A stretch of 64,000 nt of DNA from Catenuloplanes indicus (GTDB lineage: Bacteria > Actinomycetota > Actinomycetes > Mycobacteriales > Micromonosporaceae). Where the stretch lies: contig NZ_JAUSUZ010000001.1 of NCBI RefSeq assembly GCF_030813715.1, positions 7,130,001 through 7,194,000 on the forward strand, written 5' to 3'. A program made the position numbers and the translations under genes. The notes under the pieces were generated by a model that made no database searches, was not told the DNA's origin, and saw only the letters and a program-made list of their open reading frames with translations. Below are positions 15,995 to 26,852 of the stretch, piece by piece (position 1 is the first letter of the stretch; every line of letters begins with the position of its first letter).

Positions 15995-17008
15995 ATGGCG
16001 AGATTGTTCGAGTCGCTGCCGGAGCACATCGAGGCGGCCGTCGAAGTCCGGGATGCCTGGCGCCGCCGGGTCGCGGCGGAGACGGCCGGCCTTGAGTTCC
16101 TGGTGCAGGACCTGTCCCGGTGGGCGCCCGGCGCGGTGCTCCGGGTCGCGTTCCTGGACGGTGACACCGAGGCGCACGCGCGGATCGAGGAGGCCACCCG
16201 GCAGATCACCGATGCGTGCGGCATCGCGCTCGACTTCGGCCGTGACCCGGCGACCGGTGCCTACCGGCGGTGGGCCACCACCGACACGGAGTACGCGGCG
16301 GAGATCCGGGTCAGCTTCGACCAGGGCGGCTACTGGTCGCTGGTCGGCACGGACAGTACGGACGCCACGCTCGCGGACGCGAACTCGCCGATCGGCGGCG
16401 CACCGTACCAGCGCAGCCTCAACCTGTCCGGATTCGACGGCATCCTGCCGGACGACTGGGCCGGGACCGTGCGGCACGAGTTCCTGCACGCGCTCGCGTT
16501 CAAGCACAGCCACCAGAACATGCGCGGCCCATGCCAGGACGAGTTCCGGTGGGAGGACGACGAGGGCTACGTGCCGACCCGGGACACCCGCGGCGTGTTC
16601 GTCGCGGACGAGGCGGGCCGGCGGCCGGGCGTCTACACCTACCTGGCCGGGCCGCCGAACCGGTGGACGCGCGCGAAGGTCGACTTCAACCTGCGGGCGC
16701 AGGACCCGGACGAGGCGGTCGCCGGGCCGTTCGACTCCGAGTCGGTGATGCTCTACCAGTTCGAGCCGTTCTTCTACCGGAGCGCGCCGTCGCCGTGCGC
16801 GCCGACCGGGAACGGCATCGACCTGTCCACCGGCGACATCCGCGGGCTGCAACTGCTCTACCCGCGGGCGCCCGAGCCGGACATGGTCAAGCGTGCGTCG
16901 ACCGCGCTGTCCACGCTGGGCGGCGGCGTCGAGGGCGCGGCGTTCAGCCCGTACCGGCAGCGGCTCGTGGAGGTCCTGACCGCGCTGGTCGAGGGACGGG
17001 TGCCATGA
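15995..17008 (+). CDS. intracellular metzincin-like zinc metalloprotease
   Basis: The 337-residue protein starts at the ATG at 15995, 7 nt after a GGGGGG ribosome site. Residues about 45-80 resemble the first strands of astacin/matrixin-like domains (VLRVAFLDGD). The zinc site is H161-E162-x2-H165-x5-H171, i.e. HExxHxxGxxH with Ala in place of the usual Gly. A Met-turn follows in SVMLY (Met252). No signal peptide, prodomain Cys switch or membrane helix is seen, so it probably acts in the cytosol. Its stop overlaps the next gene by 4 nt. It is first in a four-gene protease/NTPase operon and may be an effector that needs activation. Confidence 0.8.
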   Translation: MARLFESLPEHIEAAVEVRDAWRRRVAAETAGLEFLVQDLSRWAPGAVLRVAFLDGDTEAHARIEEATRQITDACGIALDFGRDPATGAYRRWATTDTEYAAEIRVSFDQGGYWSLVGTDSTDATLADANSPIGGAPYQRSLNLSGFDGILPDDWAGTVRHEFLHALAFKHSHQNMRGPCQDEFRWEDDEGYVPTRDTRGVFVADEAGRRPGVYTYLAGPPNRWTRAKVDFNLRAQDPDEAVAGPFDSESVMLYQFEPFFYRSAPSPCAPTGNGIDLSTGDIRGLQLLYPRAPEPDMVKRASTALSTLGGGVEGAAFSPYRQRLVEVLTALVEGRVP

Positions 17009-18186
17009 CCGGGGACGCGGGCCGGTACCTCGGCCTGATCGCCACCGGCGGCGGGCGGCAGACGCTGGCCGAGTCGGCCGCGTCGAGCGCCGGCAACGCG
17101 GCACCGGCCGCGAAGACCGAGCTGGTGGAACGGCTGGAGGCCGAGCTGGCCTACATCGAGTCGAAGACCGGCGTGACACCCGACCCGGCGCTGCGCGACG
17201 AGCTGCTCGCCCAGGCGGACACCGCGCTGGACAAGCTGCTCGGCGACGGCGCGGCCGCCGCGCTCACCGACGACGACGTCTCCGGCCTGGAGGCGGTCGT
17301 GGTCACCGACGGCACCCGTCCGGTGCTGTTCGTCGAGGACGACTTCGTCGACCTGCTCGCACCCAGCATCGGTGACTACGCGGCGCCGCTGTCCCGGCTC
17401 GCCGAGGAGGTCCGCTCGGTCTGCCGGTCGGTCGGCCGGGTCGACGACCCGGCCGCGGCGCCGCTCGGCTATCAGGGCACCGCCTGGGTGGTGGCCGAGG
17501 GCCTGGTCGCCACGAACTTCCACGTGCTGCAGGCGATCGCGCCGCGCGGCGTCCGCGAGGACGGCCAGTTCACCGGCCGGCTCAACCCGGGCGTGGCGGT
17601 CCACTTCGGGCACGAGGTCGGTCGGCCCTGGCCGGACCGGCGGTTCCCGATCCGGCGCGTGGTCGCGGTCGGCCGGGAGGGCGCGCCGGAGCACGTGCAC
17701 ACGGTGCTCGGCGGGCTCAACTTCGACGGCCTGGACCTGGCGATCCTGGAGCTGGAGCCGGTGCCGGGCCGCGCGTTCCCGCCGCCGGTGCCGGTGGCCC
17801 GCGGCGACGACCCGATCACCCGCGGCGGGCTGGCCACCGCCGGGCGCGGCGTCTACGTGGTCGGCTACCCCGGCAACGAGCACTCGACCACGCGTGAGCT
17901 GTTCACCCGGATCTTCGCGGGCGTGAAGAGCTACAAGCGGCTCGCGCCCGGCCGGATCACCGCGGCCGCCGGCGAGGTCCCCGACGACCCGCGCGGCTGG
18001 GTGTTCACCCACGACGTCTCGACGCTCGGCGGCAACTCCGGCTCCGCGGTCGTCGACCTGGACGCGGACGGGCGTGCCGTGCTCGGGCTGCACTTCGCCG
18101 GCCAGCCGGAACGGCAGAACTGGGCGCACGCGCTGGAGCGGATCACCGGGGAGTTGTCCGCCGTACTGCCCGCCGCGGCCCGATGA
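17005..18186 (+). CDS. intracellular trypsin-like serine protease
   Basis: The 393-residue protein has an N-terminal helical region (about 1-125) and a trypsin-like domain: catalytic His173 in ATNFHVL, Asp244 in GLDLAIL, and Ser345 in LGGNSGSA. The intact triad predicts an active serine endopeptidase. There is no signal peptide. It begins in a 4-nt overlap with the metalloprotease gene and ends in a 4-nt overlap with the next, so all are probably made in matched amounts. The N-terminal helices may hold it in an inhibited state or dock it to the partner NTPase; that is inference. Confidence 0.83.
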   Translation: MTGDAGRYLGLIATGGGRQTLAESAASSAGNAAPAAKTELVERLEAELAYIESKTGVTPDPALRDELLAQADTALDKLLGDGAAAALTDDDVSGLEAVVVTDGTRPVLFVEDDFVDLLAPSIGDYAAPLSRLAEEVRSVCRSVGRVDDPAAAPLGYQGTAWVVAEGLVATNFHVLQAIAPRGVREDGQFTGRLNPGVAVHFGHEVGRPWPDRRFPIRRVVAVGREGAPEHVHTVLGGLNFDGLDLAILELEPVPGRAFPPPVPVARGDDPITRGGLATAGRGVYVVGYPGNEHSTTRELFTRIFAGVKSYKRLAPGRITAAAGEVPDDPRGWVFTHDVSTLGGNSGSAVVDLDADGRAVLGLHFAGQPERQNWAHALERITGELSAVLPAAAR

Positions 18187-19997
18187 CCGCGGCGACCTCG
18201 CTCAGCCTCTCCGCGCTCGCCGACACGGTCACCGCGCCCGCGACCGACTGGATCGTGGTCGAGCGCGTCTGGGAGCGGGTCAGCCGTGCCCGCGGCGTGC
18301 ACATGCCGCCGCAGACCAGCCCGAATCTGCGGGACCTGCTGATCGGCGCGTTCGCGGCGGCCGGCGAGCACGGCTTCCTGGACGTCTTCGCGTTCGAGCT
18401 GATCAAAGCGGGGCTGGCCGGGCCGTCGCTGGTCACCGCGCTGCGCGCGATCGACGAGAACGCGGGCGGCTTCCAGTTGCAGGCGCTGCAGAACGGCGTG
18501 CGGCACGCGGTCAACCCGATGATGTACGCGGAGGGCCTGCTGCGCGCCTGCGACTACGTCTGCCGGATAGACATCAGGGGCGTGCAGGCCGGCACCGGCG
18601 TGCTGGTCCGGCCGACCGTGGTCGCGACCATGGCACACGTGGTCTGGCCGCTGCTCACCCAGGCGCCGGACGGCACGCTCGCGGCCGCGCCGGACAGCCT
18701 TCGCCACCTGGTGGTCACGTTCCGCGACTACGTGGACCGGGCCGCGACCCGGCTGGCCGGCGAGACCGCACCGCTGCACCCGGACTGGCTGCTGCACGGC
18801 AGCCCGCCGACCGAGGCCGAGCGGCTGCGCGCGGACGTGCGCGACATCGCCGGCATCGCCGCACCGGCCGGGCCGTGGGACCTCGCGCTGATCCGGCTCG
18901 CCGCACCGCCCAAGGGCGCGGCGCAGGCCGAGCTGATGGGCAGCCCGCCGGCCGGGCCGTTCGAGGTCAGCCTGCTGCACCACCCGCACGGGCCGCACGA
19001 ACGCGGCGAGCCGCTGCTGCTCTCCGACGGGCGGCTGGACGAGCAGCTCGGCACGCCGCCGGTGCGGTACCTGCACGACGTGAACACGCTCGGCGGCTCG
19101 TCCGGCGCGCCGGTCTTCGACCAGCGGTGGCGGATCGTGGCGCTGCACCAGGGCGGCGTCACCGGCGTGCGCAACCGGGCCGTGCCGGTGCGCGACTGGT
19201 CGCCGATGCTGGACCGGCCGCTGCCGGACGGCGTGCCCTACCTGCGCGGCCTGGAACGTTCCACCGACCTGGCGCCGACGCCGTACCCGGTGATCGGCCG
19301 CCGCGTCACCCAGCAGCGGCTGTGGCGCGCGCTGCGCCCGGACGCGGCACCGGCCGAGCGGCTGTTCGTGGTCCGCGGCGGGCCCGGCACCGGCAAGCGC
19401 TTCACGAAACGGCTGGTCCGTGAGTTCGTCGAGAAGTACAGCGACGGCGTGGTGGTCACGCTCGACCTGGCGAACGCGCTCGCCCAGGACGCGGACGGCT
19501 TCGCCCGCTGGGTCACCGGCGCGCTCTCCGCGCCCGGCCCCACGCTCACCCACGACGACGTGCTGACCACGGCGCCGCGGGAGATCCGCGACGGCGTGCT
19601 GCCCGGACTGGCCCGGCGCGTGTCCGAGGTGGGCGGTGACCGCGCGGTCTGGCTGGTGCTGGAGGGGTTCGGCGGCGCCGCGCTGGACGTACCGCCCGGG
19701 GTGAAGGACGTGGTGGTGAACCTGATGGGCCGGCTCCGGGACAACCCGTCGCAGCGGCTCGTGCTGGTCGGCTGGGACGAGCGGCCGCCGGAGGGCTTCG
19801 AGGCGGCGATCGAGGAGCTGGCGTCCCCGACCGCGTACGACATCGCGGCGCACTTCACCCCGGCCGGCTCGGCCCCGGCGGACGCACTGGTCACGGCCGT
19901 GCCGTCGCTGCTGGCGCTACAGCAGGCGCAGGGCCTGACCGGCTACCCGGCCGCGCACGCGGTGCTGCGCATGCTGGCCGCGGGTGTGGCGGCATGA
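18183..19997 (+). CDS. trypsin-like protease fused to a degenerate P-loop domain
   Basis: The 604-residue protein has three parts. Residues about 1-115 are helical and resemble an effector-associated adaptor domain. Residues about 120-370 are trypsin-like with His152 (TMAHVVW), Asp233 (WDLALI) and Ser307 (GGSSGAP). Residues about 385-600 form a P-loop region whose Walker A is GGPGTGK405 followed by Arg406 instead of Ser/Thr, with a Walker-B-like WLVLEGF ending in Glu. Nucleotide hydrolysis is therefore doubtful. The gene overlaps both neighbours by 4 nt. A protease-NTPase fusion beside a full STAND gene suggests a sensor-effector relay. Confidence 0.8.
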   Translation: MTAATSLSLSALADTVTAPATDWIVVERVWERVSRARGVHMPPQTSPNLRDLLIGAFAAAGEHGFLDVFAFELIKAGLAGPSLVTALRAIDENAGGFQLQALQNGVRHAVNPMMYAEGLLRACDYVCRIDIRGVQAGTGVLVRPTVVATMAHVVWPLLTQAPDGTLAAAPDSLRHLVVTFRDYVDRAATRLAGETAPLHPDWLLHGSPPTEAERLRADVRDIAGIAAPAGPWDLALIRLAAPPKGAAQAELMGSPPAGPFEVSLLHHPHGPHERGEPLLLSDGRLDEQLGTPPVRYLHDVNTLGGSSGAPVFDQRWRIVALHQGGVTGVRNRAVPVRDWSPMLDRPLPDGVPYLRGLERSTDLAPTPYPVIGRRVTQQRLWRALRPDAAPAERLFVVRGGPGTGKRFTKRLVREFVEKYSDGVVVTLDLANALAQDADGFARWVTGALSAPGPTLTHDDVLTTAPREIRDGVLPGLARRVSEVGGDRAVWLVLEGFGGAALDVPPGVKDVVVNLMGRLRDNPSQRLVLVGWDERPPEGFEAAIEELASPTAYDIAAHFTPAGSAPADALVTAVPSLLALQQAQGLTGYPAAHAVLRMLAAGVAA

Positions 19998-22900
19998 CGT
20001 CACCGCAGGACGCGGCGCTCGCCGCGATCCGGAACATGTGGGCCGGCCGCTCCGACGCCGAGAGGTCCGCCTTCGCGTCCACGCTGGAAACCCATCCGCC
20101 TGCGGCGGATCAACACCTTCAGGACGAGATCACCAGGGTACGGTGGCGGGGCGCACTGTCCGGCGGTGTCGACCCGGCCGCGCTCGTGACCGGCCTGGAT
20201 CCGGCCGACGCGCAACGCGTGCTCGACACGCTGGTGCCCGAGTTCGACCGGTCCCACGTGGACGAGCAGTGGCGCTGGACGATGCGCAGCGGCCCGCGCC
20301 GCGACGCGCTTCGCACGCTGGCCGACTCCCCGCGCGCGCTGACCGACGCGATCACGGACACGGTGCGCGTGCCCACCGACGACGCCGGCTACTACCTCCG
20401 CCTGCTGGCGGCCCGGTCCACCGGCGTCGGCGACCTCCCGGCGGACGGCCTCGCGGCTCGCGCGGCCACGCTGCCCGGCCGCGCGACCGAGCCGGGCCTG
20501 ACCACCGTGCCCGCCGCGGGTCCCGGTGACACGACGGAGGCCCGCGCGTCGCTGCCCGGCGCGGCCGACGCGGAGGGGCTCGCGGCGCTGGACGCGGCCC
20601 GGCTGCTGGCCGCGATCGCGGCGACCGGGACGCCACCGCCGGAGCAGCCGGTCGCCACCCGGACCGCGTTGCAGGCGCTGGCCTGGGCCGAACCGCTCGG
20701 CGGGCTGGCCGGGGACCTGGCGGAGGCGCGGCGGCGGGTGCGGGTCGAGGCGGTGGTGGACAGCTACGGTGCGCTGCTCGGCAACGGGTTCTTCGGGCGC
20801 GCGGAGGAACTGGCCCGGCTGCGCGACTTCGCCACCGGGCCGGTGACCGGCGACGGCGTGCCGGTGCCGCTGCTGCCCGTGGTCGGGCTCGGCGGCGTGG
20901 GGAAGTCGACCGCGCTGGCCGCGTTCGTCGAGCCGTACCTGCGCGAGATCCTGCGGCCGGACTCCACCGGCCCGGTGGTCATCGTGATCGACTTCGACCG
21001 CGTGCAGTTCCGGATCGACGCGGAGCTGGAACTGTCCTTCGAGGTCAGCCGGCAGCTCGGCAACGCGCACCCGGTCGCGGCCGCGGACTTCTCCGCACTG
21101 CGCTACCAGGTGCGCCAGGAGCGCGCGGGCACGGCCGCGGCCCGCTACACCGGGTCGCTCGCGGCCGGTGAGGGCGCCGGGGACGCGCCCGCGTTCGAAC
21201 GGGACGCGTCGCTGGCGGTCCGGCTGCACGAGCTGGACACCCGGCCGGTGCTGCTGGTCCTGGACACGTTCGAGGAGTGGCAGCGGGACCGGCCGGACCC
21301 GGCCCGGCCGCGCCTGCACGACAACGACCCGGAAGCGCGCATCCTGCGCTGGATCGCACGGCTGCGGGACACCATGGGGCTGCACGGGCTGCGGGTGATC
21401 CTGTCCGGCCGCGCGGACGTCGCGATCAACGCGGCCGACGTCACGGACCGGGTCGAGACACAGGCGGCGATCTGCCTGGCCGACCTGGCCCCGGCGGCCG
21501 CGGCGGAGCTGCTCGAGGCGCACGGCGTACCGGCGGAGCAGGCTCTTGAACTCGCCGTTGTGGTCGGCGGGAACCCGTTGACGCTGCGGGTGGCCGCGCG
21601 GTTCTTCGCCCACCTGCCGCCGGGCGAGCGGGCGGACTTCGTCGCGAGCGCCGGCACCGCGCTCGACGGCGAACTGCGCCGGGAGGTGCTCTACACGCGA
21701 TTCCTCGGGCACATCGCGGACCCGCGGGTGCGCCGCCTCGCCCACCCCGGCCTGATCCTGCGCCGCGTCACCGCCGGGCTGATCCGGGACGTGCTGGCAC
21801 CGTACTGCGGCCTCGGCCCGCTGACCGGCGCGGACGCGGCCGAGCTGCTGGAACGCCTCGCGGACGAGGTGTGGCTGGTCAAGCGCGACGGCGACGAGCT
21901 GCGCCACCTGCCGGACGTCCGGCGCGCGATGCTGCACCTGATGACCACCGACCCGGCCTACCGGGACGTGCTGCCCGCGATCCACCAGGCGGCCGCGCAC
22001 TGGTATCGCACGCGGCCCGGCGAGGAGGCGGCGGTCGAGGCGCTATACCACGAGCTGATGCTCCGCGTCGACGACACCGCCCGCGGGCTGTCCGAACGAT
22101 CACCGGCGCGGCGTCCGCCGATGTCGACCGGTCACGGCACCACTCCGGGGTACGGGCAGCCGCCGGCCCGGCGCGGCCGGCCGAATGGGGGCTCCGGTGC
22201 CCAGCCGGGTGCGTGGCCCGCTCCGCCGCGGGCCGGCTCCGAGCCGAAGCCGCGACGGCGGCGGGGCTGGCTGCCGGTCTGGCCGTGGCGACGGCGACGG
22301 ATGTTCGATCGTGGCGCCACGCTGTCGCCGGAAGCTCGGCCGGCCGATTCACCGGATCTCACGGACCCGGACGTGCCGATCCGGCGGCCGGACGGTGATC
22401 CGGACGTGCCGATCCGGCGGTCGGACGGTGACTCAGGCCAGGACCGGGACGGGGATCTGCTGGATCCGGCGGATCGCCGGCTGACCGGTCGGCTGGCCGC
22501 GCTCGGTGACGCGGTGGACGAGTTGCCGCCCGCGGTCGCGGCGGAGGCGCGGGTGCTGCGCGGGGAGACGCCGCCGCTGGCCGAGGCGCTGCTGCTGCGC
22601 GATTCGGCCTGGGCGCTGTGGCTGGAGCGCCGCGGCCGGTTCCTGGTCGACAACGACGCGGCGGCGGAGGCGCTGGAACTGCTGGGCGCACGGCCCGGGA
22701 TGCCGGTCACCGAGCCGGAGTGGCTGGCCCAGGCGTGCTGCGACCTCGCGCGCTGGGACGAGTACGGCCCGCGGGCGTCGGAGTTCGGCGGCGGGCGGCT
22801 GACCGCGCACCGCTACCAGACCATCGCGGCACTGCTCAGCGGCTCGGTGATCGCGCTGCCGGCGGTGGACCCGGAGACGATCGGCGGCGGGCCCGGGTTC

Positions 22901-23530
22901 CATGATCACGCGCTCATCCACTACTTCTACCGGCTGCTGCTCGGCCGGCCGGTGGACATCGCGGCGTGGCGGCGGCGAGAACCGCTGCTCATCGAGGCCG
23001 CGTCGGACCTGACCGGCGGCGATCGTGGCGCCACCGACCTGTTCCCGGTCGACGAGCTGCGCCGGGCGCTGGTCTGGGTCGCGGCCGGCTGCCCCGGCGG
23101 CACGATCACGCTGCGGAACGCGGTGCCCGGCATCGGCACGTCGCTGTCCCGGCAGCAGATCGTGGACGCGCCGGAGATCCTGCGAAACCTGCGCGGCGAC
23201 AACCCGGAACTGCGCGCTGCCGTCCGCACCGCGCTCGCCGAGGCTGCCGCTGCCGAGGCTGCCGCCGGGGGCGGCGGTGCCGTGGACGGCCATGCCGGGA
23301 GGGGGGTTGCCGGGAGGGGTGTTGCCGGGATTCCTGACGCCGATGTGCTTGTTCGGATCGATCTTGCGGGTGACCTCGGCGCCTATCTGGACCGGGCCGT
23401 GGCTCACCATCCCGGCGCGACGCTGCTGCCCCGGGTCCGCGACGCGTTCCACCGCTGGGCGCGGGCCAACGACGCGGTGATCGACGCCATCGTCCGCGAC
23501 GCCGAGGCCGGCCGGCCGGACCGCGCCTGA
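19994..23530 (+). CDS. large STAND-type P-loop NTPase
   Basis: The 1178-residue protein has an N-terminal helical region (1-275) and an NTPase preceded by FFGRAEELARLRDF. Walker A is GLGGVGKS (298-305), Walker B is LLVLDTFEEW with Asp424, and the STAND GxP-like motif is GGNP (525-528). A winged-helix-like region (about 570-690) follows. Then comes a basic, Pro-rich linker (about 700-825) with a duplicated 11-residue unit, and a C-terminal helical domain (about 826-1178) interrupted by an Ala/Glu/Gly low-complexity insert (about 1080-1114). STAND proteins act as signal-induced oligomerising switches. As last gene of the operon it is the likely sensor controlling the three proteases. Confidence 0.8.
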   Translation: MTSPQDAALAAIRNMWAGRSDAERSAFASTLETHPPAADQHLQDEITRVRWRGALSGGVDPAALVTGLDPADAQRVLDTLVPEFDRSHVDEQWRWTMRSGPRRDALRTLADSPRALTDAITDTVRVPTDDAGYYLRLLAARSTGVGDLPADGLAARAATLPGRATEPGLTTVPAAGPGDTTEARASLPGAADAEGLAALDAARLLAAIAATGTPPPEQPVATRTALQALAWAEPLGGLAGDLAEARRRVRVEAVVDSYGALLGNGFFGRAEELARLRDFATGPVTGDGVPVPLLPVVGLGGVGKSTALAAFVEPYLREILRPDSTGPVVIVIDFDRVQFRIDAELELSFEVSRQLGNAHPVAAADFSALRYQVRQERAGTAAARYTGSLAAGEGAGDAPAFERDASLAVRLHELDTRPVLLVLDTFEEWQRDRPDPARPRLHDNDPEARILRWIARLRDTMGLHGLRVILSGRADVAINAADVTDRVETQAAICLADLAPAAAAELLEAHGVPAEQALELAVVVGGNPLTLRVAARFFAHLPPGERADFVASAGTALDGELRREVLYTRFLGHIADPRVRRLAHPGLILRRVTAGLIRDVLAPYCGLGPLTGADAAELLERLADEVWLVKRDGDELRHLPDVRRAMLHLMTTDPAYRDVLPAIHQAAAHWYRTRPGEEAAVEALYHELMLRVDDTARGLSERSPARRPPMSTGHGTTPGYGQPPARRGRPNGGSGAQPGAWPAPPRAGSEPKPRRRRGWLPVWPWRRRRMFDRGATLSPEARPADSPDLTDPDVPIRRPDGDPDVPIRRSDGDSGQDRDGDLLDPADRRLTGRLAALGDAVDELPPAVAAEARVLRGETPPLAEALLLRDSAWALWLERRGRFLVDNDAAAEALELLGARPGMPVTEPEWLAQACCDLARWDEYGPRASEFGGGRLTAHRYQTIAALLSGSVIALPAVDPETIGGGPGFHDHALIHYFYRLLLGRPVDIAAWRRREPLLIEAASDLTGGDRGATDLFPVDELRRALVWVAAGCPGGTITLRNAVPGIGTSLSRQQIVDAPEILRNLRGDNPELRAAVRTALAEAAAAEAAAGGGGAVDGHAGRGVAGRGVAGIPDADVLVRIDLAGDLGAYLDRAVAHHPGATLLPRVRDAFHRWARANDAVIDAIVRDAEAGRPDRA
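22364..22429 (+). repeat. 33-nt tandem duplication inside the STAND gene
   Basis: Two nearly identical 33-nt units (22364-22396, 22397-22429) encode DPDVPIRRPDG and DPDVPIRRSDG, residues 791-812. They differ at two or three bases. The duplication is in frame and lies in the disordered linker. Confidence 0.85.
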
Positions 23531-23560: not shown

Positions 23561-23606
23561 CATGCCGGCGCGGCGAGCGCGGCCCGGTGGATGCGGGCGG
23601 GCCCGG

Positions 23607-24140
23607 TCAGGGGCGGCGGCGGAGCGTGGCGAGCGTGATCGCGGTGAACAGCAGGGCCACCGAGGCCGTGCCGATCAGCAAGGCGGTGATCGAGGCGTGA
23701 CCGGCGGCCGGGACCTCGACGTCGGCCATCCGGACCGCGGGTGCCGGGGGTGCGGCGCAGACGACCGTGCCGGGGACGGACGCGGCACCGCCGCCCGCGG
23801 CCGGCGTGGGGCAGGGGCCGGACGTGGCGACCGCGGCCGGACCTGCGGCGGTCCCCGAACCGAGGCCGGAACCGAAGCCGGAACCGGAACCGAGACCGGA
23901 ACCAGAACTGAGGCCGGAACCGGAACTGAGGCCGGAACCGAGGCCGAGGCCCGAACCGGAACCGGAGACGAAGCCGGAACTCGGGCCGGTGGCCGAGTAG
24001 ACCGGGTCCTGCCAGCAGGCGAGGAAGCCCAGCACGCCGAGCGTGAGCAGGATCGCCCAGCGGATGATGCGGCGGCGCGTGAGGAAGCCGCCGGCCTCCG
24101 GGGTGGAGGCCGGCATCGCGGGTGGGCGGCGCGGGCTCAT
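23607..24140 (-). CDS. Gly/Ser-rich membrane protein
   Basis: The 177-residue protein has a cytosolic basic start, a membrane helix (about 27-45), an extracytoplasmic linker of GSGSG/GLGSG-type repeats (about 55-100), then a Pro/Ala/Val region with two cysteines and a second membrane helix (about 150-170) ending in RRR. The Gly/Ser tract comes from a degenerate tandem DNA repeat of GGxTCCGGxTCC type. It starts 6 nt after the lectin-protein stop, so the two are one operon. No function is known; it may span or anchor in the wall. Confidence 0.6.
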
Positions 24141-24146
24141 GACCGG

Positions 24147-26852
24147 CTACCCGGGGAGCGCGGTCCAGGACTGGTGCAGCAGGCCCTCCGGGGTCTGCAG
24201 CGAGAGGACGCGCGCGCCGCCGTACCGTTGCTCGCCGAGACCGGCCACCAGGTTGGCGCCGGCCGCGCGGAGCGTGAAGCCGTTGGCGGTGGGCAGGACG
24301 ACCCAGTGCTGTTCATCGGCCGCCTCCTTGCAGGTGACCTGGACGAGGGGGACTCCGGCGGCGACCTCGCCGTCCAGCGGGACCACGCACTTCCCGGTGA
24401 CCCGGGAGATCAGCTGGAACGCGTCGCCGACCCGGCGCAGGCTCCACTGCTGCTGCGTGACGCCTTCGGCACGCTGGACCACGATCGGCGTGGACTCGTT
24501 GGAGCGGGCGCCGTAGAGGTGCGCGGCGCCGCCGGTGAGCGCGTTGTTGAGCTGGAACCAGCCGTCCATGATCGGGCGGGCGGCCGGTGAGGTCTTCGCG
24601 GCCAGCGCGTCCGTGAACCGCTCGCCGTCGTTGGTCAGCACCTGGATGCTGTACTCCGTGCCGGGCGTCAGGCCGATGATCCGGGCCCGGGTGGCCGCGG
24701 TGACGCCGATGATCTGCCCGTTGACCGTCACCGTGTAGTGCACCGCGTCCGTGGCCGCGTTCCAGCTGACCCGGGTGGACGTGCTGGTGGTGTCCCGGAT
24801 CTTCAGAAAGCCGGGCGGCGGTGGCGCGCCGATCGGCGGTTCGCTGGCCAGGCCGGGATCGGCCGGTGGCGGGGACGGCAGGGACGGTCGCGACGGCGTC
24901 GGCGAGACCGCGGACGCCGTGACCGACGGGCTGGGCGAGGCCGGTGCACCGGCGCCCCGGCCACCGGCCTGCGGCTGATCGCCGTCGCCGGTGTCCTCCG
25001 GGTCCTCGGGATCCTCCGGGTCGTCCTCACCGCTGGTCGGCGTGGGGGACGCCGGCGCCGGCGTGGGTGACGTGGTCGGCGCGGTGGACCGGCGCGGCGA
25101 CGGCGACGGGTTGCCACGCGGCGGTGTCACGGCCTCGGCCGGGCGCTGCGGAGCGGGTTCCGCGGCCGCTGCGGCCTCGCGGATCAGGAACTCGCTGTTC
25201 GCCAGGTTCCAGTTCTGCGTGAGGTAGCTGCCCGGCTCCGGGTCGGTGTTGAAGTAGTCGTCGCCGCCGCAGTCGAGCAGTGCCTCGCCGGACGCACTCT
25301 CGCAGTCGAGCCGGACCTCCTCGCCGCTCTCGTCCGGGTAGCACATCAGGTCGTGGTCGTCGACGCAGTGGCCGAGGCCGCTGCCGTTCGGCGCGTCGTC
25401 CCCGACGCCGCCGAGCGTGTGCACGAGCTGGTGCGCGGCCATCGGCGCGGACCAGCAGCCGGCGTCCACCCGGGCGTAGGACGGACCGCCGTTGTTCAGG
25501 TTGCCGGCGTCCGCCCGGGAGTCCCGGATGATCGTGCCGATGCCGCAGTAGACGTTCGTGTCCGCGAAGATCAGGTACTTCCGGTCGGTGCGGTCGTAGC
25601 CGAGCGCGCGCAGGCCGGCGAGCGTCACGTCGAAGCTGTCCAGCCGGTCCGCGGGCAGCTGCACCTCGGTCACGTCGACCCGGCAGTCCGGCGTGGTCAC
25701 GTAGCGTACGTGCCGGATGCCGCCGGTGCGGGCCGCGCTGGCGGAGAAGATCTCGTCGACCTCGGCGGCCCAGCGGCGGATCGACGGCAGGTAGCGGCTG
25801 AACCGGCTGACCGCGTCCGTCGGGTAGGCGTAGATGACCTGCACCCGCTTGCCCTGATAGCCGTCGCCCTCGCAGGCCACGCCGTCCTCGCCCATGGTGA
25901 ACGTGTCGTCGCCGCTGGCCGGGTCCGGCACCAGCGCGGGCATCGTGCTGGCCGGCACGACCGCGCCCTCGTCGCGCACCACGTCCGCGTCGTCCGGCAC
26001 GCCGCGGGTGTCCTTGACCGGCTCGACCAGCGGGGGCACGCCCTCCGCGATCGGGGCCACGTCCTGGGTGACCTTGAACGTCGGCGGTGCCGGGTCCGGC
26101 CCGTACGAGCAGGCGCCGCCGGAGTCGTTGATCTCGTAGGCGCCGATGCAGAGCGAGTTGCGGCTGGCCGGGGTGAGCCCGTCGTAGACCAGGCCGTCCT
26201 CCGGCTGGCTGGCCGGCAGCGCCGCGATCGGGACCAGGCCGGGCAGCGAGCTGATCCCGGGCGTCCACTGGGTGAGCAACGCGGGCAGCACCAGCAGCGC
26301 GATGCCGAGCACCACGGCGCCGGTGGCCAGGTTGATCCGGCGCGGGAGACGCACGGTCGCGGGCAGGTCGCGCGCGGCCGACGTGCGGCGGACGACCTCG
26401 CCGTGCCGCTTCGCCGCGCGCGGCTCGGCCGGGGCCGGGACGCGCCCGCCGCGGTCCCGCCGGATCGCCTGCACGCGCATCAGCTGCGTGCGGCTGGCCC
26501 AGGCCGGCAGTTCCTGGGCGCGGCGGCGGGCGCCCTCACGGCGTACCGCGGACGGGGTTCGCGGCTCCTGGGGTGTTGCGGTCGCGGCCGGGCGGGTGAG
26601 GCGGTCGCGCAACGCCGGCACCAGCTGTGCCGAGACGATCTCGCGCAGCCGCGCCCAGCGCGCCGCAATGCCGGCGGACCGCATGATCCCGGGCAGTCGC
26701 GCGAGTCCGGTGGGGAGACCGGCACGCCGCGGCTCCGGGGCACCGGCACGGCGGTGCCGTGCGGTGGTCGAGCCGAACGACGCCGGAAGATCCCGGATGA
26801 AGGAGCGCGTTGTGGCCGTTCGCCGCCGTGGAAGCTCGCGGTGCGACGACAC
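24147..26852 (-). CDS. membrane-anchored pseudo-metalloprotease with FnIII and ricin-lectin domains
   Basis: The 901-residue protein starts at a GTG (26852) 10 nt after GGAGG. A basic cytosolic region (1-170) precedes one membrane helix (about 175-200, ATGAVVLGIALLVLPALL). Outside is a domain like secreted actinobacterial zinc proteases, with H474-Q475-x2-H478 where HExxH is expected, followed by GHCVDDHDLMCY. Next come a Pro/Thr/Ser/Asp linker, a fibronectin type III domain (about 685-770), and a ricin-type beta-trefoil (about 775-901) with QQQW and LHQSW motifs. The Glu-to-Gln change predicts a catalytically dead, perhaps binding-only, domain. It is probably a cell-surface carbohydrate- or protein-binding factor. 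The start choice is moderately certain. Confidence 0.78.
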   Translation of the reverse strand: MSSHRELPRRRTATTRSFIRDLPASFGSTTARHRRAGAPEPRRAGLPTGLARLPGIMRSAGIAARWARLREIVSAQLVPALRDRLTRPAATATPQEPRTPSAVRREGARRRAQELPAWASRTQLMRVQAIRRDRGGRVPAPAEPRAAKRHGEVVRRTSAARDLPATVRLPRRINLATGAVVLGIALLVLPALLTQWTPGISSLPGLVPIAALPASQPEDGLVYDGLTPASRNSLCIGAYEINDSGGACSYGPDPAPPTFKVTQDVAPIAEGVPPLVEPVKDTRGVPDDADVVRDEGAVVPASTMPALVPDPASGDDTFTMGEDGVACEGDGYQGKRVQVIYAYPTDAVSRFSRYLPSIRRWAAEVDEIFSASAARTGGIRHVRYVTTPDCRVDVTEVQLPADRLDSFDVTLAGLRALGYDRTDRKYLIFADTNVYCGIGTIIRDSRADAGNLNNGGPSYARVDAGCWSAPMAAHQLVHTLGGVGDDAPNGSGLGHCVDDHDLMCYPDESGEEVRLDCESASGEALLDCGGDDYFNTDPEPGSYLTQNWNLANSEFLIREAAAAAEPAPQRPAEAVTPPRGNPSPSPRRSTAPTTSPTPAPASPTPTSGEDDPEDPEDPEDTGDGDQPQAGGRGAGAPASPSPSVTASAVSPTPSRPSLPSPPPADPGLASEPPIGAPPPPGFLKIRDTTSTSTRVSWNAATDAVHYTVTVNGQIIGVTAATRARIIGLTPGTEYSIQVLTNDGERFTDALAAKTSPAARPIMDGWFQLNNALTGGAAHLYGARSNESTPIVVQRAEGVTQQQWSLRRVGDAFQLISRVTGKCVVPLDGEVAAGVPLVQVTCKEAADEQHWVVLPTANGFTLRAAGANLVAGLGEQRYGGARVLSLQTPEGLLHQSWTALPG

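What the first reader, a model, noticed from the sequence alone, without database searches (positions are those of the whole stretch)
15995..23530. Four-gene intracellular protease cascade controlled by a STAND NTPase
A metzincin-like metalloprotease, a trypsin-like protease, a trypsin-like protease fused to a P-loop domain, and a 1178-residue STAND NTPase are encoded by four genes joined by three 4-nt overlaps. All three protease active sites look intact and none has a signal peptide. Bacterial conflict/programmed-death systems pair STAND switches with effector-associated domains and proteases; two different catalytic classes of protease in one coupled operon is unusual. Inference: a sensor NTPase activates a proteolytic relay that kills or arrests the cell on infection or damage, analogous to caspase-like systems.
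Basis: partly seen in the sequence, partly recalled or inferred. Interest (0 to 1): 0.88.

Follow-up and report, generated by a model that had tools for sequence, protein, structure and literature searches.

The report
STAND-controlled protease operon with metzincin
Four coupled genes encode a STAND ATPase, two serine proteases and a zinc protease that look like a bacterial cell-death switch of the CARD-NLR/LypABC kind, in which the zinc protease takes the place where relatives carry a nuclease or another protease.

Summary
Four genes (15995-23530) are joined by three 4-nt overlaps; the three protease active sites and the STAND motifs are intact, and hydropathy shows no export signal.

The four-gene set occurs in 5 of 5 Catenuloplanes genomes held and once in a distant genus. 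Its last three genes are an older module: V8/trypsin-like protease, protease fused to a degenerate P-loop domain, STAND ATPase. It occurs in several actinobacterial families and on Rhizobium and Ruegeria plasmids. In domain layout it matches the protease of LypC, LypA and LypB of Caulobacter, a CARD-NLR-like lysis system whose two peptidases and STAND ATPase others showed to be needed for lysis.

Near the core lies a variable partner: NucA-type nuclease (25 of 49 loci), metzincin (6 of 49, never together), or a fused subtilisin (plasmids); 12 of 40 STAND cores have neither nuclease nor metzincin.

What looks new is an astacin-type metzincin as partner, with an insertion beside its zinc site absent from 13 of 13 other metzincins, reminiscent of protease-unlocked proenzymes.

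Cell death, defence and metzincin activation are inferred. No CARD was detected, and LypABC sequences were not compared.

The parts
15995..17008 (+). g1: 337-aa astacin/myroilysin-like metzincin, no signal peptide seen
   Evidence: profile hit to solved myroilysin 6.9e-17; HExxHxxxxxH and a Met-turn methionine conserved in 9 aligned relatives
16475..16507 (+). g1 zinc site H161-E162-x-x-H165...H171 (Ala where the metzincin consensus has Gly)
16520..16609 (+). g1 stretch (approximate limits) that holds the 25-26-residue insertion after the third zinc His, with Cys180; a second conserved Cys is at 268
   Evidence: present in 10 of 10 g1-clade members, absent in 13 of 13 other metzincins; Cys180 and Cys268 invariant in 9 aligned rows
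17005..18186 (+). g2 (called T_A): 393-aa V8/trypsin-like serine protease; catalytic H173, D244, S345
   Evidence: Trypsin_2 1.2e-11; PADLOC PDLC03010 2.4e-31; profile of 14 T_A hits glutamyl endopeptidase structures at 3.5e-14, profile of 8 close ones hit none; triad invariant
17284..17322 (+). conserved stretch before the protease domain of T_A (G94, E96, A97 ... R105, P106)
   Evidence: invariant in 14 T_A sequences
18183..19997 (+). g3 (T-PL3): 604 aa; N-terminal region 1-112 of unknown fold, protease domain 119-337 (H152, D233, S307), degenerate P-loop domain 360-599
   Evidence: Trypsin_2 1.4e-10; domain limits from local HMMs; triad invariant in 8 rows; Walker A degenerate
19260..19979 (+). 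PL3: degenerate P-loop domain of g3 (GGPGTGKRF)
19994..23530 (+). g4: 1178-aa STAND NTPase; NTPase and following region 250-693, fast-evolving C-terminal part 834-1178 (candidate sensor)
   Evidence: AAA_16 1.2e-8, nSTAND1 8.7e-7; Walker A, Walker B, GR and GNP motifs; per-region identity and dN/dS
20903..20905 (+). g4 Walker A lysine K304

Best explanation
g2-g3-g4 form a CARD-NLR/LypABC-type core: g4 is the STAND (NLR-like) switch, g3 the adaptor protease with a pseudo-ATPase tail, g2 the second protease. On sensing a cue through its fast-evolving C-terminus, g4 oligomerises, gathers g3 and unleashes the two serine proteases. The metzincin g1 is the partner that acts downstream: it is most likely held latent, possibly by the insertion beside its zinc site, unlocked by cleavage, and then degrades cell proteins so that the cell dies, lyses or stops growing. 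Shown here by sequence: the gene set, catalytic motifs, coupling, conservation, recurrence, the insertion, and nuclease or metzincin as alternative partners. Shown by others for LypABC only: need for both peptidases and the STAND ATPase in lysis, toxicity when overproduced, LypA-LypB contact. Inferred: every dynamic step, the trigger, the direction of the relay and the outcome in Catenuloplanes.
For: Four genes in 5 of 5 Catenuloplanes genomes and in G1232 of a distant genus at 60/55/39/47% identity. T_A, second protease, PL3 and STAND on one strand within five genes in 40 of 49 distinct T_A loci (50 rows, one duplicate). Layout of g3, g4 and the T_A-NucA relatives equals LypA, LypB, LypC as described in PMC13236601, including a LypA ATPase domain lacking Walker residues. 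Partner swap: NUC in 25 of 49 loci (22 with STAND), METZ in 6, both in 0; on plasmids S8 subtilisin is fused to T_A beside T-PL3 and STAND and NucA lies beside T-PL3 and STAND. Triads intact in 55 of 55 protease domains with E below 1e-15 and zinc motif plus Met-turn in 22 of 22 metzincin rows. Insertion 10 of 10 against 0 of 13. The proenzyme idea follows the protease-unlocked nucleases and 'active site-blocking insertions' of PMC12799240 (discussion read).
Against: No CARD or effector-associated domain found in g3 or g4. LypABC and Lysobacter sequences were not fetched, so membership rests on layout. The local HMMs were trained on loci they label, and loci were chosen by similarity to T_A, g1 or g3. 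In LypABC the fused endonuclease is dispensable for lysis, so the partner gene need not be the effector. Twelve of 40 STAND-containing loci have neither NUC nor METZ, among them the close relatives L068, L069 and L070. T_A-NucA proteins also stand without an annotated STAND gene nearby (3 of 3 plasmid loci opened for this, by annotation only). Kept synteny in Catenuloplanes fits a domesticated role as well as defence.
Confidence: 0.58

Rival explanations
1. The metzincin is an upstream or regulatory component (sensor protease, activator or off-switch that clips g2, g3 or g4), and the serine proteases are the executioners.
For: In LypABC the endonuclease is dispensable while both serine peptidases are needed. 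g1 is the first gene, and cores without any metzincin exist. g1-clade metzincins also sit beside other proteases near MoxR-type and VWA genes.
Against: In 28 of 49 loci a nuclease or a metzincin lies on the same strand within five genes of the STAND core, never both (22 NUC + 6 METZ), which fits an effector slot better than a regulator.
Confidence: 0.2
2. Regulated proteolysis for development (for example hyphal or sporangial lysis) or release of phage-like particles, rather than phage defence.
For: Present in 5 of 5 Catenuloplanes with kept neighbours and purifying selection; LypABC serves gene transfer agent release (abstract and section 9 read).
Against: Patchy elsewhere: 31 of 295 genomes of genus g70, 9 of 394 of the class with the first profile, 3 of 396 of the phylum, the last two counts including the own genome; relatives on conjugative plasmids.
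Confidence: 0.25
3. The metzincin is a passenger that happens to precede a three-gene core.
For: Core without it in the close relatives L068, L069 and L070.
Against: 4-nt overlap with g2 kept in 4 of 5 Catenuloplanes; same position in a distant genus; purifying selection on g1 (0.27-0.42); a protease gene next to 9 of 10 g1-clade metzincins although the own genome has only 14 Trypsin_2 matches in 9.25 Mb.
Confidence: 0.06

Closest known systems
LypABC, CARD-NLR-like system of Caulobacter crescentus (Banks et al. 2026, PMC13236601; abstract, section 9 and passages read)
   Same: LypA: N-terminal helical domain, trypsin-like domain, ATPase domain lacking Walker residues, as g3; LypB: STAND ATPase, as g4; LypC: protease fused to a NucA-type domain, as the T_A-NucA relatives of g2. 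The paper calls CARD-NLR systems rare and the lyp operon not associated with known immunity genes.
   Different: The window has a separate metzincin and no endonuclease; no CARD detected in g3; no direct sequence comparison made.
CARD-NLR gasdermin systems (Wein et al. 2025, not held; known here only through PMC13236601)
   Same: NLR-like ATPase, protease and an exchangeable death effector
   Different: The effector here would be an astacin-type metalloprotease; those named in the passages are gasdermins, phospholipases and endonucleases.
NucA-trypsin 'System 3' (Kaur et al. 2020, PMC7159879; sections 12 and 32 and passages read)
   Same: T_A is homologous to protease-Endonuclease_NS fusions; several peptidases, sometimes with S8 and a STAND NTPase; a cascade is predicted there
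   Different: No nuclease in the window; neither a metzincin nor a T-PL3 protein is described for that system in what I read (a metallopeptidase is mentioned as a rare vWA-fused effector).
Trypsin-MBL nuclease pairs in Avs, Hachiman and Lamassu (PMC12799240; passages and discussion read)
   Same: A defence-linked trypsin-like protease paired with a latent enzyme bearing a loop beside its active site
   Different: There the latent enzyme is a nuclease and proteolytic activation was shown; here it is a protease and activation is inferred.
Myroilysin/astacin family
   Same: Zinc motif, Met-turn and profile match
   Different: No signal peptide seen in g1, and an insertion after the third His.

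Membership tests
CARD-NLR / LypABC-like | STAND/NLR-like ATPase with intact Walker A and B | tested here: met
CARD-NLR / LypABC-like | Protease fused to a C-terminal degenerate ATPase domain (LypA-like) | tested here: met
   g3 layout and degenerate Walker A against the description
CARD-NLR / LypABC-like | N-terminal CARD on that protease | tested here: inconclusive
   No hit for the g3 N-terminus in Pfam; PDB sequences gave only two unrelated lectin-type hits at E 0.92-0.93; EAD1 comparison weak; no usable structure
CARD-NLR / LypABC-like | Second, LypC-like protease | tested here: met
   g2 present and homologous to protease-NucA fusions; its need was not tested
CARD-NLR / LypABC-like | Sequence homology of g3 and g4 to LypA/LypB or the Lysobacter proteins | not tested
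NucA-trypsin System 3 (Kaur 2020) | NucA-type endonuclease in the operon | tested here: not met
   no Endonuclease_NS hit in the four proteins; present in relatives
Astacin-like metzincins | HExxHxxGxxH and Met-turn | tested here: met
   HExxHxxAxxH and SVMLY: ligands met, Gly replaced by Ala
Astacin-like metzincins | Metzincin fold | tested here: inconclusive
   profile match to myroilysin in two pieces between positions 41 and 295; AlphaFold2 model of no use
Avs1 / trypsin-MBL pairs | MBL-fold nuclease next to a trypsin-STAND fusion | tested here: not met
   no MBL hit among g1-g4 and the following ORF
EAD-coupled systems (Kaur 2020) | Shared effector-associated domain on core and partner | tested here: not met
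   no EAD hit in g1-g4 up to E 1, so a very divergent one is not excluded; EAD5, EAD1 or EAD2 in some relatives and their neighbours

The most novel reading that the evidence does not exclude
A bacterial inflammasome-like STAND switch whose executioner is a cytoplasmic astacin-type metalloprotease zymogen: serine proteases cut the insertion beside the zinc site and release a second-class protease that digests the cell, making a true two-class protease cascade inside a bacterium.
Probability: 0.3. Interest if true: 0.85.

Novelty: new variant of a known kind. Interest (0 to 1): 0.62.

Why it matters
According to PMC13236601, CARD-NLR systems kill through gasdermins, phospholipases or nucleases, and the lytic effector of LypABC is unknown. 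A metzincin (and, in Rhizobium and Ruegeria, a subtilisin) in the partner position suggests that proteases themselves can be the swapped-in output of the same STAND-protease core. That would be a bacterial counterpart of a multi-step protease cascade, and it can be tested with four genes.

Tried and rejected
Structure: AlphaFold2 of g1 with only two sequences gave mean pLDDT 35.9, so no fold search was run; the g3 job was never accepted and I gave it up. EAD/CARD in g3 or g4: Pfam, local HMM and hhalign and PDB search found nothing convincing; the first EAD1 reference set held sequences read on the wrong strand and was replaced. A fifth gene at 23562-24590 was dropped: no Pfam hit, not chosen by my gene caller, which picked 24147-26684 on the other strand, and the next gene in the relatives looked at is on the other strand. 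PADLOC: apart from the model named 'nacht', which matches 4 of 5 T_A proteins scanned (not that of L098), only weaker trypsin-like, RT-protease, LmuA, mad8, PDC and STAND_TPR matches; no hit for g1 or g4. Phages: no T_A match. PDB: no hit for g4 or for the 8-row T_A profile. Literature: ten searches, judged from capped listings, showed no paper on a metzincin in a STAND/protease operon; the library lacks most subscription papers, so this is weak.

Rejected: 'unique to this genome'; 'secreted protease operon' (hydropathy only); 'trypsin specificity' (nearest solved relatives are glutamyl endopeptidases; a His in the V8-like LH motif in 49 of 49 T_A and 38 of 38 second proteases, rows without a recognised serine motif being dropped; the meaning of that position is recalled, not tested).
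Full report
What is there. The window lies in a 9.25-Mb genome of the genus Catenuloplanes: G006, of the same genus, has a contig of the same length as the C. japonicus contig that matched g3. Four genes run head to tail with three 4-nt overlaps: g1 metzincin (337 aa), g2 serine protease (393 aa), g3 serine protease with a C-terminal P-loop-like domain (604 aa), g4 STAND NTPase (1178 aa). Upstream are a methyltransferase and an adenosine deaminase (54 nt before g1), downstream a ricin-lectin/fibronectin gene on the other strand. Fourteen of fifteen junctions in five Catenuloplanes genomes keep the overlap. dN/dS is below 0.5 in sixteen of sixteen comparisons, with adenosine deaminase at 0.10-0.21 for reference; the C-terminal third of g4 is less conserved than its NTPase region in each of four relatives.

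Folds and active sites. The g1 profile matches solved myroilysin, an astacin-family enzyme, at 6.9e-17 in two pieces that include the zinc site and the Met-turn; the single protein stays below the Pfam Astacin cut-off. Catalytic triads are intact in 55 of 55 protease domains with E below 1e-15, and zinc motif and Met-turn in 22 of 22 metzincin rows, two of which are one locus. Walker A and B of the STAND domain are intact in 19 of 20 rows; the twentieth is the second half of a split gene, L068_8. The second P-loop domain ('PL3', in g3) has lost the Walker A lysine in 10 of 20 rows, and no Catenuloplanes copy has GK followed by Ser/Thr. The g3 profile and the 14-row T_A profile match glutamyl endopeptidase/V8 structures best; the 8-row T_A profile and g4 matched nothing in the PDB.

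Spread. g3 with E of 1.6e-100 or better occurs in 8 of 250 genomes of the family. The g2 type ('T_A') occurs in 5 of 5 of the genus, in 9 of 394 of the class with the first profile, in 3 of 396 of the phylum (these two counts include the own genome) and in 31 of 295 of genus g70, probably Streptomyces. Each wide search scored only four to seven first-look candidates per genome in the rows shown, so these counts may be low. In 49 distinct T_A loci (50 rows, L025 and L029 being the same) a second protease, PL3 and STAND lie on the same strand within five genes in 40. Fusions vary: T-PL3, PL3-STAND, PL3-STAND-protease, T-PL3-STAND. Of the other nine, five have T_A with a long second protease (in the plasmid relative L211 Pfam shows protease-TIR-NTPase; L208 was read by eye only), three have T_A with NucA only, and one has neither. 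Loci were chosen by similarity and the HMMs were trained on part of them, so the figures describe architecture and are not an unbiased survey.

The partner position. A NucA-type nuclease is fused to T_A or on its strand within five genes in 25 of 49 loci (22 with STAND), a metzincin in 6, both in none; 12 of the 40 STAND-containing loci have neither (Pfam check of representatives). The metzincin type is the Catenuloplanes five plus L204 in genome G1232, which also holds a NucA-type locus, L186. In the trees L204's T_A groups with a metzincin-less relative (99/92) and its metzincin with those of L031-L033 (95/96), so the label needs at least two changes: joined twice, or old and lost. On plasmids, Rhizobium phaseoli and Ruegeria pomeroyi carry a subtilisin-T_A fusion, T-PL3 and STAND; Sinorhizobium has the first two only; Polaromonas has T-PL3, STAND and NucA, with no T_A seen in the stretch fetched, which ends at the record's start; Hymenobacter has protease, PL3, STAND, a gene without Pfam hit and T_A; Mesorhizobium has a PLD-like domain fused to T_A and a second protease. 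T_A-NucA without an annotated STAND gene nearby was seen in 3 of 3 plasmid loci opened for it.

The metzincin. Ten of ten g1-clade metzincins have 25-26 more residues between the third zinc His and the Met-turn than 13 of 13 others, and two cysteines invariant in nine aligned rows. A protease gene is next to 9 of 10 g1-clade metzincins, not that of L031; among the other 13 it is next to five, one gene away in one, and absent in seven. The own genome has 14 Trypsin_2 matches at E up to 1e-5. The clade is rare: 1 of 340 class genomes, its own, at E up to 1e-20.

What it most likely is. In Caulobacter, LypA (helical CARD-like, trypsin-like, ATPase lacking Walker residues), LypB (STAND with TPR-like repeats) and LypC (trypsin-like plus NucA-type) are needed for lysis, through both peptidases and the LypB ATPase; the nuclease activity is dispensable, overproduction is toxic, and LypA binds LypB (PMC13236601). 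g3, g4 and the T_A-NucA relatives of g2 have the same parts in the same order. I therefore read the operon as a LypABC/CARD-NLR-like core with a metzincin as partner. The step from there to 'latent metzincin unlocked by the serine proteases and then destructive' is inference, guided by protease-unlocked nucleases (PMC12799240).

Limits. No CARD was found in g3; LypABC sequences were not compared; the g1 model was useless; I found no biological outcome for an actinobacterial member in the papers seen. In Catenuloplanes the locus keeps its neighbours, which fits a domesticated role as well as defence.

Noticed in passing
L071, L038, L080 (unnamed family genomes): Shorter metzincins without the insertion sit directly beside a roughly 420-aa protease.
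   Followed up: partly
L033 10611-15978: A g1-clade metzincin gene overlaps the gene of an EAD2-protease and lies beside MoxR-type AAA and VWA_CoxE genes, a ternary-type conflict locus.
   Followed up: partly
L069 4918-15504: g3 and g4 homologues are fused in one 1621-aa protein, facing a PP2C-type gene (Pfam seen in the L070 homologue), a gene with no Pfam hit in L070, a protease and an EAD1-P-loop gene.
   Followed up: partly
L211 7818-13689 (Streptomyces cellulosae plasmid): T_A beside a 1625-aa protease-TIR-NTPase protein.
   Followed up: no
L220 7420-16794 (Bradyrhizobium plasmid): A NucA-protease gene with two more protease genes, near queC, queD, queE and a dpdB gene as annotated.
   Followed up: no
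window 15995-17008: NCBIfam NF050131 'beta-glucuronidase AbsR1' matches this metzincin at 1.5e-13, far below its cut-off; the family name may deserve a check.
   Followed up: no
window 17005-18186: PADLOC model PDLC03010 is named 'nacht' but matches T_A proteases (4 of 5 scanned).
   Followed up: no
L100, L101, L104 and others of genus g70: A caspase-domain gene (Pfam 5e-23 in L100) stands on the opposite strand beside the core in 21 of 36 genus g70 loci.
   Followed up: partly
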